Shown: piece by piece, positions 7,232 through 59,386 of the stretch
Layout: each line of letters starts with the position of its first letter
Numbering within the stretch: position 1 is the first letter of the stretch
Source: Veillonellaceae bacterium
GTDB taxonomy: Bacteria; Bacillota_C; Negativicutes; UBA1444
Reading direction: 5' to 3'
DNA length: 64,000 bases
NCBI GenBank assembly: GCA_012798135.1
Contig: JAAZNU010000021.1
Location: 62,001-126,000, forward strand
The notes under the pieces: generated by a model
The model's database searches: none
What the model was told of the DNA's origin: nothing
The model's input: only the letters and a program-made list of their open reading frames with translations
Translations under genes and position numbers: made by a program

Positions 7232-8194
7232 ATGAACAAGATATTTCTCACTGGCGGCGCGGGGTTCATCGGCAGTAATCTGGCCGACCGGCTGGCCGCT
7301 GACGCCGCTCGCGAGGTCGTGGTTTACGATAATTTCAGCACCGGCCGTGAACTGTTCTTGGCCCAGGCGCTGGCAAAGCCGAACGTCCGCATCGTGAAGG
7401 GTGATTTGCAGGATACGGAGCGGTTGACGCAGGCCATGCGGGGCTGTGATTTTGTTTTCCATTTGGCGGCCAATGCCGACGTGCGGTTCGGGACCGAGCA
7501 TCCGCGCAAGGATCTGGAACAGAATACGCTGGCTACTTTCAATGTTTTGGAGGCGATGCGGCAAAACGGCGTGAAGCGTCTCGCTTTTTCCTCGACGGGA
7601 TCGGTGTATGGGGAGGCGACGGTCATCCCCACTCCCGAGACGGCGCCATTTCCAATACAGACTTCGTTGTACGGCGCGTCAAAATTGGCCTGCGAAGGAC
7701 TCATCGCGGCATACGCCGAAGGATTCGGCATTCAGAGTTATATCTTTCGGTTTGTGTCGATTTTGGGGGAACGGTATACGCATGGACATGTGTTCGATTT
7801 TTACCGGAAATTGCTGCGGGATCCCGCCCGTCTGGAAATTCTGGGCGACGGCCATCAGCGCAAGTCCTATCTGTATATTCAGGATTGCCTCGATGCGATC
7901 TTTTGCGCCATCGAAAAAGCGGCTGACAAAGTCAATATTTTTAATTTGGGAACGGATGAATATTGCGAAGTCAATGATTCGGCCGGCTGGATCGCCGAGA
8001 CCCTGGGGCTGTCGCCCAAATTGGAATATACGGGCGGCCGTCAGGGGTGGATCGGCGATAACCCGTTTATTTTCCTCGACTGCGCCAAAATTCGTGCTTT
8101 GGGTTGGCAGCCCAAGCTGACAATCCGGGAGGGCATCATCAGAACCTTAAAGTATTTGCAGGAAAACCCCTGGGTTTTCGAAAGCCGGACGTGA
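7232..8194 (+). CDS. NAD-dependent nucleotide-sugar epimerase/dehydratase
   Basis: 320 residues from ATG 7232 (CACAGGGG upstream). Extended SDR fold: Rossmann motif TGGAGFIGS at residues 7-15, HLAANADVR, the Ser-Thr pair of FSSTGSVYGE and the catalytic YGASK. Closest in pattern to UDP-glucose 4-epimerase/dTDP-glucose 4,6-dehydratase-like enzymes; substrate is not decidable from sequence. It belongs to the surface-glycan operon and would supply a modified NDP-sugar to the glycosyltransferases downstream. Confidence 0.88.
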   Translation: MNKIFLTGGAGFIGSNLADRLAADAAREVVVYDNFSTGRELFLAQALAKPNVRIVKGDLQDTERLTQAMRGCDFVFHLAANADVRFGTEHPRKDLEQNTLATFNVLEAMRQNGVKRLAFSSTGSVYGEATVIPTPETAPFPIQTSLYGASKLACEGLIAAYAEGFGIQSYIFRFVSILGERYTHGHVFDFYRKLLRDPARLEILGDGHQRKSYLYIQDCLDAIFCAIEKAADKVNIFNLGTDEYCEVNDSAGWIAETLGLSPKLEYTGGRQGWIGDNPFIFLDCAKIRALGWQPKLTIREGIIRTLKYLQENPWVFESRT

Positions 8195-37572: not shown

Positions 37573-37605
37573 GAAGATGGGGGGCGCCCCATGCGGAGGA
37601 AGAAC

Positions 37606-38595
37606 ATGAATGTGTTGGTGACCGGCGGTGCCGGCTATATAGGTTCGCACGCGGTGCGTGAGCTGCTCGCGGCGGGGCACAAGGTCGTGGTGTACGACAG
37701 CCTGGTGAAGGGGCATCGCGGGGCTGTGCCGGACGGTGTGCCGTTCGTGAAGGCGGATATCCGCAATGCAGCGGTGCTGGCGGAGACGTTCGAGGTGTTC
37801 CCGGTCGACGCGGTGATGCATTTCGCGGCGGCCAGCGAGGTCGGCGAGTCGATGGTGAACCCGGCGAAGTATTATCAGGACAATGTGGCGGCGACGCTGT
37901 CGCTGCTGGAGTCGCTGAACAAGGCCAAGATCAGAAAGATCGTGTTTTCGTCGACGGCGGCGGTGTACGGCGAGCCGGAATCCTGCCCGATCCGCGAGGA
38001 TGCGGTGCTGGCGCCGACCAATGTGTACGGGCGGACCAAGCTGATTATCGAAGGGATGCTGGCGGACTTCGCGATGGCCTACGGCTTTTCGTATGTGGCG
38101 CTGCGCTATTTCAACGCGGCGGGGGCGCTGCCGGCCGGCGGCGTGGGCGAGGACCATGCGCCGGAAAGCCATCTGATCCCGTTGATTTTGAAGACGGCGC
38201 TTGGCCAGCGGGAAGCGATCTCGGTGTACGGCACGGACTATGCGACGCCGGACGGGACCTGCATCCGGGATTACATCCATGTGACGGACCTGGCGACGGC
38301 CCATGTGCTGGCGCTGGAGCATTTGCTCGCCGGCGGCGGGCCGCGGACGTACAATCTCGGTTCGCAGACCGGCTTCTCGGTGCGGGAAGTGATTGACAAG
38401 GCGAAGGCGGTGACGGGGGTTGACTTTCCGGTGAAAGAGACGCCGCGCCGGGCCGGTGATCCGGCGGTGCTGGTGGCGTCGTCGGCGAAGTTCCAGGCGG
38501 ATTTCCCCTGGCAACCGCGCTACAGCGATCTGGAGACGATCCTGCGCACGGCCTGGGACTGGCACCGCAGCCATCCAGAAGGGTACGGGAACTGA
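37606..38595 (+). CDS. galE: UDP-glucose 4-epimerase
   Basis: 329 residues from ATG 37606, with GCGGAGGA five bases upstream. TGGAGYIGSHAV at the N-terminus, HFAAASEVGESM, FSSTAAVYG, catalytic YGRTK and RYFNAAGA give the GalE pattern, including the S-T and Y-x-x-x-K catalytic residues. Product UDP-galactose, for the surface glycan or LPS. The intergenic stretch after it holds the unusual conserved-loop hairpin before pgi. Confidence 0.94.
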   Translation: MNVLVTGGAGYIGSHAVRELLAAGHKVVVYDSLVKGHRGAVPDGVPFVKADIRNAAVLAETFEVFPVDAVMHFAAASEVGESMVNPAKYYQDNVAATLSLLESLNKAKIRKIVFSSTAAVYGEPESCPIREDAVLAPTNVYGRTKLIIEGMLADFAMAYGFSYVALRYFNAAGALPAGGVGEDHAPESHLIPLILKTALGQREAISVYGTDYATPDGTCIRDYIHVTDLATAHVLALEHLLAGGGPRTYNLGSQTGFSVREVIDKAKAVTGVDFPVKETPRRAGDPAVLVASSAKFQADFPWQPRYSDLETILRTAWDWHRSHPEGYGN

Positions 38596-38607: not shown

Positions 38608-38686
38608 GGCGGACTGGATCGGGGCATGAGATAAGCGGAGGTTAAGCGAAGCGTCGAAGCGTTCTCATCCTCGATCCAGTCCCGCC
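38608..38686 (+). repeat. Conserved-loop hairpin element, copy 1 (galE-pgi gap)
   Basis: A hairpin with a 33-nt loop (38631-38663, starting ATAAGCGGAGG and holding four AAGCG units) that is base-for-base identical to copy 2 at 52605-52637. Upper stem ATGAG (38626-38630) pairs with CTCAT (38664-38668). A single bulged C is at 38625. The lower stem runs from 38611-38624 to 38669-38682 with one G-T pair, extended by about three more pairs beyond one bulged base. The lower stem shares no sequence with that of copy 2. No T run follows. Orientation is given as plus by position in the galE-pgi unit; not proven. Confidence 0.85.
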
Positions 38687-38728: not shown

Positions 38729-40204
38729 ATGTCGGACATGAAGTTGCAGCTGCCCAGCGGTTTCTCTTTTGATTATGAAAACCTGTTCGGCGACGGCAAA
38801 GTCACGGCTGCCGAGCTCGAAGCCCTCGCCGACCGGATCGCCGCCGCCCACCGGGCTGTCGAGCATATGCGCGCGACCGGTGAAGTGAACGCGCACCTGT
38901 CCAAGGACGGCACGCCGGAAAAAGTCTTGTTCACCCAACTGCCGCACGTCGAGCCGGGCCACCTTAACTCACCGGAATCCATCGCCCGCCTGAAGGCGTT
39001 CGGCGCGTCCCTGAAGGATAAAGTGGATGCGGTTGTTTCCTTTGGCATCGGCGGTTCCTACCTCGGCAATAAGGTGCTGTTCGACGTGCACTGCGGCGAG
39101 TTCTGGAACCTGCAAACGGCGGCGGAGCGCGACGGCTGGCCCAAACTTTATTTCTCGGGAAATAATCTGGACCCGCGGCGCACTGGCGAACTGCTCGACC
39201 AACTGGCGCGCGAGGCCAAAATGAAGGCACATCACCATCCCAGCCAGCTCTACCGGGTCTGCCTGGTCGTGATCTCCAAATCCGGCTCGACCATCGAAAC
39301 GACCGCGACGTTCATGGCGCTGTACGATGCCTTGCGGCGACTGACGCCGCCCATCGAGGTGAAGGTGGTGGCGGTGACCGATCCGGCGACAGGACCGCAG
39401 GAGACGGTGCTGCATCGTCTGGCCCGCACTCATGGCTGGCCGACGTTTTCCGTGCCGGACGGCGTGGGCGGCCGGTTCAGTATTTTTGCCGAAGTTGGCC
39501 TGGTGACCGCCGCCTGCATCGGCTTTGACATCGACGCTTTTTTGGCCGGCGCCCGGGCCATGGACGAAGCTTGCCGCACGGCTGACGTTTCCCGGAACCC
39601 GGCGCTGCTCAACGCCAGTCTGAAATATCTGGCGGCGGCGAAGCACGGACGAAAACTGGAAGTGTTCATGCCGTACGCTGACTATCTGAAATCGGTGGCG
39701 GAATGGTACATTCAGCTGCTGGCGGAATCGCTCGGCAAGCGGACCGATCGGGAAGGCCGGACGGTGTATTATGGCCGGACGCCGATCGTGGCGGTGGGCA
39801 CGACGGACATGCATGCCCAGACCCAGCAGCATCAGGACGGCGCGCAGGACAAGGTGGTCCAGTTCCTGCGCATCCAGGAATGGGAACGGGATATTACCGT
39901 GCCGAACGTGTTTGCCGATGAGGCGGGCGTCGCCAAGTTCGCCGGCATCCCTCTGTCAGCGGCTCTGGAAGTAGCCCGCGAATCCAATGCCGAAGCGTTG
40001 GCCGCCGATGGCCGGTTCAGTGCGGTGTTCAGCCTGCCGCAGCTGAATGCGTTCCATCTGGGCGAGCTGCTGTATCTGCTGGCCCTGTCGGTCGCCTATG
40101 AAGGGGAACTGGCCGACGTGGACGCCTTTGACCAGCCAGGAGTGGAAGCCTACAAACGGATCATGGGGCCGAAGATTGCTCGCCTGAAAACTGCCGGCCA
40201 ATGA
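38729..40204 (+). CDS. pgi: Glucose-6-phosphate isomerase
   Basis: 491 residues from ATG 38729, with CTGGAGGTG upstream. PGI features: SFGIGGSYLGNKVLF, VISKSGSTIETTATF (the SKSGxTxET phosphate loop), GVGGRFSIF and the QQHQDGAQDK segment. It interconverts glucose 6-phosphate and fructose 6-phosphate, linking the UDP-sugar branch (galU/galE) to the mannose and heptose branches (manC, transaldolase). The conserved-loop hairpin lies just upstream of its ribosome-binding site. Confidence 0.94.
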   Translation: MSDMKLQLPSGFSFDYENLFGDGKVTAAELEALADRIAAAHRAVEHMRATGEVNAHLSKDGTPEKVLFTQLPHVEPGHLNSPESIARLKAFGASLKDKVDAVVSFGIGGSYLGNKVLFDVHCGEFWNLQTAAERDGWPKLYFSGNNLDPRRTGELLDQLAREAKMKAHHHPSQLYRVCLVVISKSGSTIETTATFMALYDALRRLTPPIEVKVVAVTDPATGPQETVLHRLARTHGWPTFSVPDGVGGRFSIFAEVGLVTAACIGFDIDAFLAGARAMDEACRTADVSRNPALLNASLKYLAAAKHGRKLEVFMPYADYLKSVAEWYIQLLAESLGKRTDREGRTVYYGRTPIVAVGTTDMHAQTQQHQDGAQDKVVQFLRIQEWERDITVPNVFADEAGVAKFAGIPLSAALEVARESNAEALAADGRFSAVFSLPQLNAFHLGELLYLLALSVAYEGELADVDAFDQPGVEAYKRIMGPKIARLKTAGQ

Positions 40205-51805: not shown

Positions 51806-52246
51806 ATGATCGTACAATCGACGCGATTCGGCGAACTGGATGTTCCGGATGGACAAATTCTGGATTTCCCGCAGGGTGTACTGGGCTTTCCGGCGGAAAA
51901 ACGGTTCGCGCTCATGGAATATAAAACTGACAGCCCGTTCTATCTTTTGCAGTCATTGGCGGATGCGGACCTGACCTTTTTGATGATCAATCCATTCGCC
52001 TTTTTCAATGACTACGAATTTGCCATGGATGATGCCCTGATGGCCGAGATCGGCGTGACGGCGGACAATCCGCCGTCGGTATTCAACATTGCCACCGTCA
52101 AAGATAAGATCGAGAACATGACGGTTAACCTGGCCGGGCCGGTCTTGGTCAACCTGCGTGACCGCAAGGCGGCCCAATGGGTCATCGAGAAAACCGTTTT
52201 CCCGACCAAGTACGCACTGTTCCCGGCCACTGCGGGAGGGAAATAG
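51806..52246 (+). CDS. fliW: Flagellar assembly factor FliW
   Basis: 146 residues. [23 protein letters not shown] at the start and FVMINPF-like [15 protein letters not shown], then [24 protein letters not shown]. FliW binds flagellin and CsrA in a partner switch: free flagellin releases CsrA repression of hag. csrA follows 2 nt later, as in Bacillus subtilis. Confidence 0.94.
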
Positions 52247-52248
52247 CC

Positions 52249-52491
52249 ATGTTGGTATTGACCCGCAAACCTGGCGAACGTCTCGTCATCGGTGACAACA
52301 TCGTGGTGACGGTCGTGGACGTGAAGGGGGATAACATCCGGATCGGCATCGATGCTCCCCGCGAAGTGAAAGTTTACCGCGGTGAAATCTATGACGCCAT
52401 CGTCGCCGAAAACCGCCAGGCGGCCTCGCCGATCGGCGACCTGACCGGCCTCGACCAACTGAAAGCCTCGCCGGAAAAGAAATCCTTGTAG
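52249..52491 (+). CDS. csrA: Carbon storage regulator CsrA
   Basis: 80 residues from ATG 52249 with GGGAGGGAAATAGCC upstream. [20 protein letters not shown] at the N-terminus; L4 and R44 (VYRGEI), the RNA-contacting residues, are present. The C-terminal extension (from ~60) is longer than in E. coli, as in FliW-regulated CsrA proteins, where it binds FliW. A terminator follows. Confidence 0.95.
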
Positions 52492-52562: not shown

Positions 52563-52586
52563 GTGGTATGAAAATGTTGATTTAAA

Positions 52587-52654
52587 GGAAGGGGACGCCA
52601 TAGGATAAGCGGAGGTTAAGCGAAGCGTCGAAGCGTTCCTATGCGTCCCCTTCC
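52587..52654 (+). repeat. Conserved-loop hairpin element, copy 2 (csrA-hag gap)
   Basis: The same 33-nt loop as at 38631-38663, here 52605-52637, identical at every base. Upper stem ATAGG (52600-52604) pairs with CCTAT (52638-52642); compared with copy 1 the two middle base pairs are exchanged on both sides (covariation). A bulged C is at 52599 in the same place. The lower stem is 12 perfect pairs, 52587-52598 with 52643-52654, unrelated in sequence to copy 1. It lies between the csrA terminator and the hag promoter, so it is not part of either predicted transcript. The loop contains GGAGG. Orientation follows copy 1. Confidence 0.85.
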
Positions 52655-52717
52655 CTGCGTGATGCCTTTATTTCATACACAACTTAAAAATCCCTATATT
52701 TTTTTCAAAAACACTAT

Positions 52718-52819: not shown

Positions 52820-52856
52820 ATCGGGCAAGGAAGCCCGATGTAAAAATCAAGGAGGA
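52820..52856 (+). promoter_or_regulatory. Predicted CsrA-binding hairpin and Shine-Dalgarno site of hag
   Basis: A perfect 7-bp stem ATCGGGC (52820-52826) with GCCCGAT (52833-52839) presents the loop AAGGAA, i.e. a GGA in a hairpin loop, the classical CsrA site. A second GGA lies in the ribosome-binding site AAGGAGGAAG (52849-52858). The same two-site arrangement is known for Bacillus subtilis hag, where CsrA blocks translation. Confidence 0.72.
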
Positions 52857-52863
52857 AGAAACC

Positions 52864-54447
52864 ATGATTATTAACCACAATATCGCCGCGATGAACACCT
52901 ACAACAAATTGAGCGCGAACAACGCCGCGACCTCGAAATCCCTGGAAAAACTGTCCTCGGGTCTCCGCATCAACCGCGCTGGCGACGACGCCGCCGGACT
53001 GGCGATTTCCGAAAAAATGCGGGCTCAGATCCGCGGCCTTGACCAAGCCTCCAACAATGCCCAGGATGGCATCTCACTCATTCAGACCGCTGAAGGCGCG
53101 CTGACCGAAACCCATAGCATTCTCCAACGGATGCGCGAATTGGCGGTCCAGTCGGCTAATGACACCAATACGAATGCCGACCGTACGGAAATTCAAAAAG
53201 AGGTCGACGAACTGGCCAAGGAAGTCACCCGGATTGCCAATGATACCGAATTCAACACGCAAAAGTTAGTGAATGGCGCTATCTCGGATAGCGGGCTGGG
53301 TTCCATGAAGTTTCACATTGGCGCCAATGCCGACCAAAACATCACTCTGTCGGTGGCGGCTATGGATGCAAAATCGTTGGGTGTATCCCGTGATACTTCG
53401 ACCAATACGGGAACCACTGCAGGTGACATCAATACGGCGACCTTCAGTGACCCCGTCGGTTCGGGGATCGCAAATGGTGCGGTATTGACGTTCCAGTATA
53501 CAGCGGGATCCGCCGCGACAGCCGCAACAGCTGGTCAGGTTACTGGCGCAGCGGGAACCCCTGCGACAAGTTTGGCTGGTATTGCTGCTGACGCAGCATT
53601 GACGGTAACTATTGACAGTGTTGCTTACACTGTTGACAGTGCTGCCCTGAAAACGGCTTCTAACGCTGGGGCCGGGACAATGACGGATTTTGCATCTGCA
53701 ATTCAAACCGCGATTGGCGCAAACGGCTCAGTGTCGGTAAATGCAGGCGCTTTGGTCATTACTTCCGCCACTACTGGAACGACTTCGAATGTCACTATTG
53801 GGATCGCGAGCAGCGTCGGTGCTGATGTTACTGCAATTCAAACAGCTACCGGTTTGACAAATGCCGCAACGGATACTGGTGACGCTGCTGTGGCCGCCGT
53901 TTCAGCGAAGGTCACCGTTTCTGACGGTGCGATTACTCAGGACGTCAATATCGACGATGCAACGGCGACCAGCTTCTCGGTGGAAGCCGGACGCTACAAA
54001 GGCGTAAGCATTACGATGGATGCTACAAAATCGTTGGCTGATTTGGACAGTGTCAATGATACGGTTACTGTGGCTCAAACTGTCAACGTTTCGAGCGCAG
54101 CCAGCTTCTCGGCCGGTGTCACGACAGCCGCCGTCGCCTATGCCGGTCTCGATGTCTCTACACAGGACGCGGCGAATGATTCCATCACGGTGATCCAAAA
54201 AGCGATCGAAACCGTTTCGGCGGAACGCTCCAAAATGGGTGCCTACCAGAACCGGCTAGAACACACCATCAATAACCTCGATTCTTCCAGCGAAAACATC
54301 TCCTCCGCCGAATCCCGCATCCGCGACGTAGACATGGCGAAGGAAATGATGAACTACCAGAAAGGCAACATCCTGAACCAAGCCGCGACCGCGATGTTGG
54401 CCCAGGCCAACCAGTTGCCGCAGGGCGTTCTCCAGTTGCTCCGGTAA
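52864..54447 (+). CDS. hag: Flagellin
   Basis: 527 residues from ATG 52864. The N-terminal D0/D1 region MIINHNIAAMNTYNKLSANN, LSSGLRINRAGDDAAGLAIS and the C-terminal ISSAESRIRDVDMAKEMMNY are conserved. The central part (about 180-420) is long, rich in Thr, Ala, Ser and Val, and uses A/T-ending codons more than the ends, which suggests fast change or exchange of the exposed domain. Subtilis-type Hag is about 304 residues, so ~220 are inserted. Control by sigma-28, FliW and CsrA is predicted from nearby sites. The glycan genes could glycosylate it, but nothing in the sequence proves that. Confidence 0.95.
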   Translation: MIINHNIAAMNTYNKLSANNAATSKSLEKLSSGLRINRAGDDAAGLAISEKMRAQIRGLDQASNNAQDGISLIQTAEGALTETHSILQRMRELAVQSANDTNTNADRTEIQKEVDELAKEVTRIANDTEFNTQKLVNGAISDSGLGSMKFHIGANADQNITLSVAAMDAKSLGVSRDTSTNTGTTAGDINTATFSDPVGSGIANGAVLTFQYTAGSAATAATAGQVTGAAGTPATSLAGIAADAALTVTIDSVAYTVDSAALKTASNAGAGTMTDFASAIQTAIGANGSVSVNAGALVITSATTGTTSNVTIGIASSVGADVTAIQTATGLTNAATDTGDAAVAAVSAKVTVSDGAITQDVNIDDATATSFSVEAGRYKGVSITMDATKSLADLDSVNDTVTVAQTVNVSSAASFSAGVTTAAVAYAGLDVSTQDAANDSITVIQKAIETVSAERSKMGAYQNRLEHTINNLDSSSENISSAESRIRDVDMAKEMMNYQKGNILNQAATAMLAQANQLPQGVLQLLR

Positions 54448-59160: not shown

Positions 59161-59386
59161 ATAAAGAACCTTCTGCTTAGGTCCGTGGTTGAAAATCGAT
59201 GCCAGTCGCAGGCGAAACGATCCACGTAAGGGGTCCAAGGCGGCCCTGAGCATGGTGCGGCTTAGGGATAAGTCCTGCCGGATTCATCCGAGAGAAGTAG
59301 TAGTGAGAGGAGCAGATCCGGGGTAGCGAACCTTCCAGCAGGCGAGTGTGGGGTCAAAGACCAGGTCGGCTAAGCAGGGTCCTTTA
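59161..59386 (+). ncRNA. Structured non-coding RNA, about 225 nt, possibly raiA class
   Basis: A closing stem pairs 59163-59180 with 59370-59385 (CTGCTTAG/CTAAGCAG plus ACC/GGT and AAAG/CTTT). Inside: a hairpin built from CGTGG/CCACG, ATCG/CGAT and GCC/GGC (59184-59226); CCCTGAGC/GCTTAGGG (59244-59267) enclosed by GGCGG/CCTGCC; CGGA/TCCG (59279-59290); and GGTC-AAA-GACC (59352-59362). It has its own sigma-A promoter. The stretch AGTAGTAGTGAGAGGAGCAG (59296-59315) is unpaired and looks like a conserved RNA core. Length, fold and Firmicutes context suggest the raiA RNA motif, but I cannot verify this against a covariance model. No raiA/hpf gene follows. Confidence 0.75.

What the first reader, a model, noticed from the sequence alone, without database searches (positions are those of the whole stretch)
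38608..38686. Hairpin with an invariant 33-nt loop and a replaced, fully complementary stem (copy 1)
Compared with 52587-52654, the loop (33 of 33 nt) is identical while the lower stem is completely different yet pairs 14 bases (one G-T). The 5-bp upper stem covaries (ATGAG/CTCAT against ATAGG/CCTAT) and a single bulged C sits at the same place in both. Selection on loop sequence plus stem pairing, but not stem sequence, is the hallmark of a structured RNA or of an element recognised as a folded single strand. The loop contains four AAGCG units and a GGAGG. I do not recognise it as a known family. Here it lies between galE and pgi, just before the pgi ribosome-binding site.
Basis: seen in the sequence. 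Interest (0 to 1): 0.88.

Follow-up and report, generated by a model that had tools for sequence, protein, structure and literature searches.

The report
Roaming hairpins with one fixed tip
These are two copies of an apparently uncatalogued kind of repeated hairpin that is scattered through the genomes of a number of Negativicutes bacteria, with nearly the same folded tip on a stem about 21 base pairs long whose sequence is free to change as long as it pairs; it may be a mobile element that is recognised by its shape.

Summary
Both window copies share an identical 33-nt tip on unrelated, paired stems. Covariance models match the same hairpin in at least 35 of 380 Negativicutes genomes, with at least 118 copies in one; Rfam 15 has no match. 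On 64 members 95.4% of pair cells pair and 23 of 25 pairs show two-sided changes. The "loop" is itself folded (GC/GC, a GNA/GNA internal loop, one free covarying pair, a mini-hairpin); tips outside the alignment mostly agree. Stem length is nearly fixed: 34 of 43 stem clusters have 19-23 bp. In some genomes it is a clearly amplified repeat (near-identical 116-nt palindromes); in the window lineage stems differ from copy to copy, even at the same csrA-hag site in two species. Tested neighbours share no function, so it is no dedicated pgi regulator. Best reading: a probably mobile palindromic element recognised as a folded strand through tip and stem length. Molecule (RNA or single-stranded DNA) and protein are unknown; wobble pairs are not preferred outside one group, and the folded strand is mostly antisense to genes in two groups, which argues against a simple mRNA element.

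The parts
38608..38686 (+). Copy 1, whole hairpin, between galE and pgi
   Evidence: (R1 91.4 bits)
38611..38624 (+). Copy 1 lower stem, 5' arm; pairs with 38669-38682 (one G-T)
38669..38682 (+). Copy 1 lower stem, 3' arm; 3 more pairs (38608-38610 with 38684-38686) follow across a bulged C
38625..38625 (+). Bulged base between lower and upper stem (C here); seen in most aligned copies of the window/G001 lineage, not in most other genomes
38626..38631 (+). Copy 1 upper stem, 5' arm; pairs with 38663-38668
38632..38662 (+). Copy 1 folded apical core (conserved module)
52582..52660 (+). Copy 2 as matched by the model (stem 52587-52654), between csrA and the flagellin gene
   Evidence: (R1 86.1 bits)
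52587..52598 (+). Copy 2 lower stem, 5' arm; pairs with 52643-52654
52606..52636 (+). Copy 2 folded apical core
37591..38595 (+). galE-like epimerase gene upstream of copy 1 (PF01370)
38729..40204 (+). pgi, downstream of copy 1 (PF00342)
52177..52491 (+). csrA open frame upstream of copy 2 (PF02599; the start is probably further in)
52864..54447 (+). flagellin gene downstream of copy 2 (PF00669, PF00700)

Best explanation
Both copies belong to a family of dispersed palindromic elements of Negativicutes. SHOWN: one strand can fold into a stem of about 21 bp of free sequence capped by a conserved, covarying core, and the family is multi-copy and recently amplified in some genomes. INFERRED: the element is non-autonomous and mobile. 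A host- or transposon-encoded protein binds it as a folded single strand, reading the core (GC/GC, GNA/GNA, one free pair, mini-hairpin) and the stem length of about two helical turns rather than the stem sequence. That lets the arms drift or be replaced as long as they pair, while the core is kept. Single-stranded DNA exposed in replication is somewhat more likely than RNA as the folded form. The window copies are settled members; whether they also do something for galE-pgi or csrA-hag is not shown.
For: Family: matches in 31 of 380 class genomes with R1, plus G094 and G304 and G140 and G141 with R2, so at least 35 of 380; a few weak single matches (such as G102, G244, G296) were not looked at one by one. 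Folding. Core fold; tips absent from the alignment; a C-G version of the free pair in G659. The thermodynamic alternative for the core has no covariation. Stem length: 34 of 43 stem clusters 19-23 bp. Amplification: near-identical 116-nt palindromes at 18 loci of G308, 25 core matches in 800 kb of G308, 118 and 72 matches in G308 and G298. Patchy: absent from both orthologous gaps in G002. No common neighbour function. Against mRNA function: no G-T over A-C preference outside group C (36:35); in the 64-member alignment pairs 34-53 and 42-49 switch without any G-T; tandem-gene orientation antisense 16:1 and 15:3 in groups B and C.
Against: No transposase or binding protein was found. Of 78 Y1-transposase matches, 30 loci were fetched and 1 has an element in its flanks; one further match lies about 240 bp from a G308 copy. 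Two genomes with 32 and 19 copies have no Y1 match. No end-sequence pair enclosing a gene showed in 800 kb of G308, checked by end motif only. No target-site duplication or empty site was proven. In group C G-T outnumbers A-C 33:6, as expected of RNA. In the window/G001 lineage orientation leans to sense (6:3, not significant). The same csrA-hag gap is occupied in two species and another gap in two genomes, which could also mean local function. Four group-B tips break core pair 40-50 and have G-T at 34-53. Stem-length and orientation evidence comes partly from genomes with alike stems and from orthologous sites.
Confidence: 0.5

Rival explanations
1. A transcribed RNA element: the hairpin acts in mRNA or as a small RNA, bound by a protein or cut by RNase III (which needs about two turns of duplex, recalled), setting stability or processing of neighbouring messages.
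For: Purine-rich core with GNA/GNA and a 20-22 bp stem; window and G001 copies lean to sense orientation (6:3); G-T over A-C 33:6 in group C; the RNA fold of the + strand is very stable; csrA-hag site kept in two species.
Against: Antisense to tandem genes 16:1 and 15:3 in two groups; no wobble preference elsewhere, 36:35; no common neighbour function; patchy and amplified like a mobile repeat.
Confidence: 0.25
2. Ordinary MITEs moved through their terminal sequences by a DDE (IS630/Tc1-like) transposase; the core is passive cargo or a remnant.
For: In G308, G298 and G074 the hairpin lies inside larger palindromes with TA-rich ends.
Against: Terminal sequences differ between these genomes and are not seen at the window copies, while the core and stem length are shared; passive cargo would not keep compensatory changes.
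Confidence: 0.15
3. Pairing is kept without selection by template switching (quasipalindrome correction) while the core is kept for some other reason.
For: Symmetric G-T and A-C mismatches outside group C; stem conservation falls from tip to base in the G001 lineage.
Against: Does not explain the near-fixed stem length, the core covariation or the core conservation.
Confidence: 0.07
4. The core inserts into pre-existing hairpins such as terminators.
For: One G001 copy (L031) has a longer stem and a T run.
Against: The orthologous gaps in G002 have no comparable hairpin (-7.9 and -2.8 kcal/mol); the csrA terminator is separate and intact next to copy 2; stem length is nearly fixed.
Confidence: 0.03

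Closest known systems
REP / REPIN elements (GTAG- or CGTC-tagged palindromes; RAYT-mobilised for GTAG)
   Same: Short dispersed palindromes, many copies; a RAYT is reported to recognise single-stranded REP DNA (PMC3733652, passages seen).
   Different: REP stems are 5-13 bp (GTAG) or 8-9 bp (CGTC) with a terminal tag; here stems are about 21 bp of free sequence and the conserved part is the tip; no clear Y1 transposase association.
MITEs (palindromic, TA-rich target)
   Same: Near-identical 116-nt palindromes with TATA ends in G308, similar elements in G298.
   Different: A MITE family is defined by its ends (general knowledge); here the ends differ and the centre is shared between genomes.
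Rickettsia palindromic elements and other bacterial palindromic repeats (recalled, not compared)
   Same: Dispersed hairpin repeats.
   Different: Not compared here. Copy 2 has no blastn match in the phage or plasmid records.
DNA mini-hairpins d(GCGNAGC) (recalled; only a search listing seen)
   Same: The core contains GCGNAGC strings, and the mini-hairpin has a GNA or GNNA loop in many members.
   Different: Two of the three GNA units are better read as facing each other across an internal loop, because the flanking pair covaries.

Membership tests
Rfam families (release 15) | Score at or above a family's gathering cut-off | tested here: not met
   Window: only raiA, elsewhere. 20 loci: only RNase P, 5S rRNA and tRNA, none on the element. 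Permissive searches of 6 loci and of copy 1 give only sub-threshold microRNA, snoRNA and tp2 matches (best MIR156, E 0.0028, 29 bits against a cut-off of 62).
REP (GTAG/CGTC) | Stem 5-13 bp (GTAG) or 8-9 bp (CGTC) | tested here: not met
   34 of 43 stem clusters are 19-23 bp; REP values from PMC3733652 passages.
REP (GTAG) | RAYT / Y1 transposase gene flanked by the repeats | tested here: not met
   1 of 30 fetched Y1_Tnp loci (of 78 matches) has an element in its flanks; G316 and G072 have copies but no Y1_Tnp match.
REP (GTAG/CGTC) | GTAG or CGTC tag at one end of the palindrome | not tested
   Not scanned; in 34 clusters the base pair is G-C in 21, with 5' A in 20 and 3' G in 19.
MITE | Short, many near-identical copies in a genome | tested here: met
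   G308 and G298. Not met in the window/G001 lineage, where stems differ.
MITE | Terminal inverted repeats with target-site duplication and a matching autonomous element | tested here: inconclusive
   Inverted ends beside TATA in G308; a duplication cannot be told from TA-rich ends; no gene-bearing copy seen in 800 kb. None seen at the window copies.
Intrinsic terminator | Stem followed directly by a T run | tested here: not met
   No T run directly after either window copy.

The most novel reading that the evidence does not exclude
A class of mobile or mobilisable element addressed by fold alone: a protein measures a two-turn stem of any sequence between a base junction and a fixed folded core, so each copy can wear a different stem, even at the same site in sister species. 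It would be a bacterial shape-addressed element outside the REP, MITE, IS200/IS605 and integron attC schemes.
Probability: 0.25. Interest if true: 0.85.

Novelty: new variant of a known kind. Interest (0 to 1): 0.62.

Why it matters
Bacterial palindromic repeats are usually recognised by conserved stems or ends. Here the conservation is turned inside out: tip and stem length kept, stem sequence free, with compensatory changes inside the tip. It is a clean natural experiment for structure-only recognition, a ready covariance model for annotating Negativicutes genomes, and a lead to an unknown hairpin-binding or mobilising protein.

Tried and rejected
CsrA site: one GGA lies in the window core, but 20 of 64 aligned members read TA or AA there (column 32), and the neighbour functions do not fit. 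RAYT/Y1 partner: not supported. Strand-specific RNA wobble: the first count, 53:18 for G-T over A-C, looked convincing but came mainly from group C; outside it 36:35. Thermodynamic fold of the core (GTT/AGC): no covariation. First gene-orientation script took antisense open frames as genes (it misread galE) and was replaced by codon-model calls. Viral pattern hits: 35 stretches, the best with 5 mismatches to the fuller tip, none accepted as the element. Of 26 genome contigs pattern hits 7 are the element, all in the MAG UBA1444; 19 are not. Hammerhead and 8-17 DNAzyme likeness: recalled only, does not fit. Template switching and terminator insertion: see rivals.

Print searches. I saw listings (titles and starts of abstracts, capped at 6 to 20 papers, of up to 374 holding the terms); none listed was about this element. 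The five sequence strings occur in no held paper. This covers only the held open-licence library. One paper, PMC3733652, was seen in passages.

Dropped or faulty rows: A1 misplaced L029 and L038 (wrong minus-strand coordinates) and was replaced. A2 used 14 sequences, leaving out L032 (N), L038 (degenerate), the N-broken second C93 copy and L010 (N). A4 was fitted to R1. In one search, 109 of 120 pattern hits passed the stem score, 110 members. In one search, 19 of 110 members did not parse; one search lists them, and four (group B) break core pair 40-50. One row (window, minus strand) is a false match. Groups A, B, C are my pooling of genomes with alike stems; the tools told no kinship.

Full report
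WHAT IS THERE. The 33-nt tip at 38631-38663 and 52605-52637 is identical; the lower stems are unrelated but paired. The RNA fold of each + strand is better than all 200 shuffles (z -6.3 and -6.9); as DNA the z-scores are -4.3 and -5.2. The minus strands fold too (z -3.9 and -4.7 as RNA). Rfam has nothing on it at the gathering cut-off.

A FAMILY. No genome is held for the window. An exact 18-mer of the tip hits 26 genome contigs stretches; 7 show the element, all in the metagenome assembly Negativicutes UBA1444, here G001. G001 has 15 tip matches with up to 3 mismatches and none of the reversed control; no other of the 380 held class genomes has one. A covariance model from 14 copies (R1) widens this to 31 of 380 class genomes at E 0.01 (only the 12 best candidates per genome were scored). 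R2, from 64 members, was run on 36 chosen genomes, the 31 positives plus 5 negatives: 33 match, so two negatives turned positive. Matches: 118 in G308, 72 in G298, 54 in G299, 34 in G306, 32 in G316, 19 in G001, 1 in G002, 0 in G313, G290 and G307 (131 candidates scored per genome). In a phylum sample 4 of 398 genomes match: G001, G140, G141, G659. G140 and G141 are in the class list, which makes at least 35 of 380; G659 is not in that list and may lie outside the class. The five best hits of the last three genomes, as aligned, keep the architecture with further tip variants.

STRUCTURE. On 14 copies 90% of cells pair and 18 of 20 pairs have two-sided changes. On 64 members it is 95.4% and 23 of 25, with 0 of 500 shuffles as high in any measure and slid registers at 33-50% paired. 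That alignment was fitted to R1, which leans towards the outer stem. Read from the columns the core is 5'-TAAGC GNA R GTYAA [GY GN(N)A RC] G K Y GNA GCGTT-3'. GC pairs with GC; GNA faces GNA (two G-A mismatches around an N-N, my inference, which explains why the N positions vary); R pairs Y; GY...RC is a mini-hairpin. I found this on the same 64 sequences, so I checked tips that occur in none of them. Of 18 such tips that parse, pair 40-50 is G-C in 10 and A-T in 8; 34-53 is G-C 10, A-T 7, A-C 1; 42-49 is C-G 12, T-A 6. Among 19 further tips that did not parse, four of group B break 40-50 (G-G) and have G-T at 34-53, and others have single departures. G659 has C-G at 34-53. Some of these tips come from genomes also in the alignment. 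The minimum-energy alternative shows no covariation.

STEM LENGTH. Clustering 110 members by stem gives 43 clusters; 34 have stems of 19-23 bp. In those 34 the base pair is G-C in 21, the 5' neighbour A in 20 and the 3' neighbour G in 19. Genomes with alike stems contribute several clusters, so these are not 34 independent events.

MOBILITY. In G308, 18 loci (19 rows, one locus fetched twice) are near-identical palindromes of 116 nt whose ends read TATAG... and ...CATATA beside TA-rich DNA. In 800 kb of G308 there are 25 core matches, including one head-to-tail pair 116 bp apart, and partial copies at 7514 and 2301903 that keep only the left part. G298 is similar with other arms (12 loci). In the window/G001 lineage 15 copies fall into at least 11 stem clusters; the pairs next to the core are more alike than those at the base.

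SAME SITE, DIFFERENT STEM. G001 contig C180 is collinear with the window at pgi and fliW-csrA-hag (PGI 93% identical over residues 122-491, FliW 90%). Both have the element between the csrA terminator and the flagellin gene, with two differences in the 33-nt tip and unrelated stems. G074 and G078 share an occupied gap whose flanks are 84% and 78% identical, again with different stems but not at exactly the same base. So the place is kept and the stem is not; conserved function and insertion hot spot are both possible. The galE-pgi site of G001 cannot be read: the best galE match there is 43% identical. G002 lacks the element at both sites; its gaps of 44 and 39 nt fold with -7.9 and -2.8 kcal/mol.

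WHICH STRAND, WHICH MOLECULE. G-T against A-C mismatches in the arms are 53:18 over one member per cluster, but as distinct events 33:6 in group C and 36:35 outside it. Gene calls by a codon model, tandem genes only: group A (window and G001) sense 6, antisense 3; group B 1 and 16; group C 3 and 15. Several of these are orthologous sites counted twice. With dnaA at base 1 of G308 and the terminus taken as the midpoint, 19 of 25 copies of the 800 kb sample lie against fork direction (positions, counted by hand; p 0.015; three evenly spaced copies and a tandem pair are not independent). The GNA/GNA core makes sense only on the + strand, which is mostly antisense to genes in groups B and C; hence my lean to single-stranded DNA, at modest confidence.

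CONTEXT. 19 proteins beside 11 window and G001 copies: DcuC carrier, mandelate-racemase family, Hsp70 and Hsp20, a weak GDSL match, radical SAM, Mur ligase, O-antigen ligase, aminotransferase, FAD oxidase, ABC-3 permease, NlpA lipoprotein, PLP enzyme, GGDEF-HD, BPD permease, epimerase, PGI, CsrA, flagellin: no theme.

VERDICT. A strongly supported hairpin family that I found in no catalogue searched here; repeat-like and in places recently amplified; mechanism inferred.

Noticed in passing
window 59172-59378 (+): raiA RNA, 191 bits, the only Rfam match of the window at the gathering cut-off.
   Followed up: no
window 52822-52863: Flagellin leader with a hairpin-like string CGGGCAAGGAAGCCCG and AAGGAGGAA before the start, resembling a CsrA-type leader (recalled), downstream of csrA and copy 2; near identical in G001.
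   Followed up: no
window 52177-52491: The csrA open frame has an N-terminal extension overlapping fliW; the true start is probably about 24 codons further in, since Pfam matches from residue 25.
   Followed up: no
G308:C1 about 35974, 61722, 87470: Three element copies exactly 25,748 bp apart, and three orphan end motifs (39145, 64893, 90641) with the same spacing, the first a degenerate copy: a triplicated 25.7-kb segment or an assembly artefact.
   Followed up: no
L110, L113, L128, L130: Copies near contig ends lie beside 5S rRNA genes.
   Followed up: partly
L298 1256-1336 and 1501-1581: Two copies 245 bp apart in G141 with different stems and a shared variant tip.
   Followed up: no
L254 (G308:C1:2057000-2059500): A Y1-transposase gene (IS200-like) lies about 240 bp from an element copy.
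   Followed up: partly
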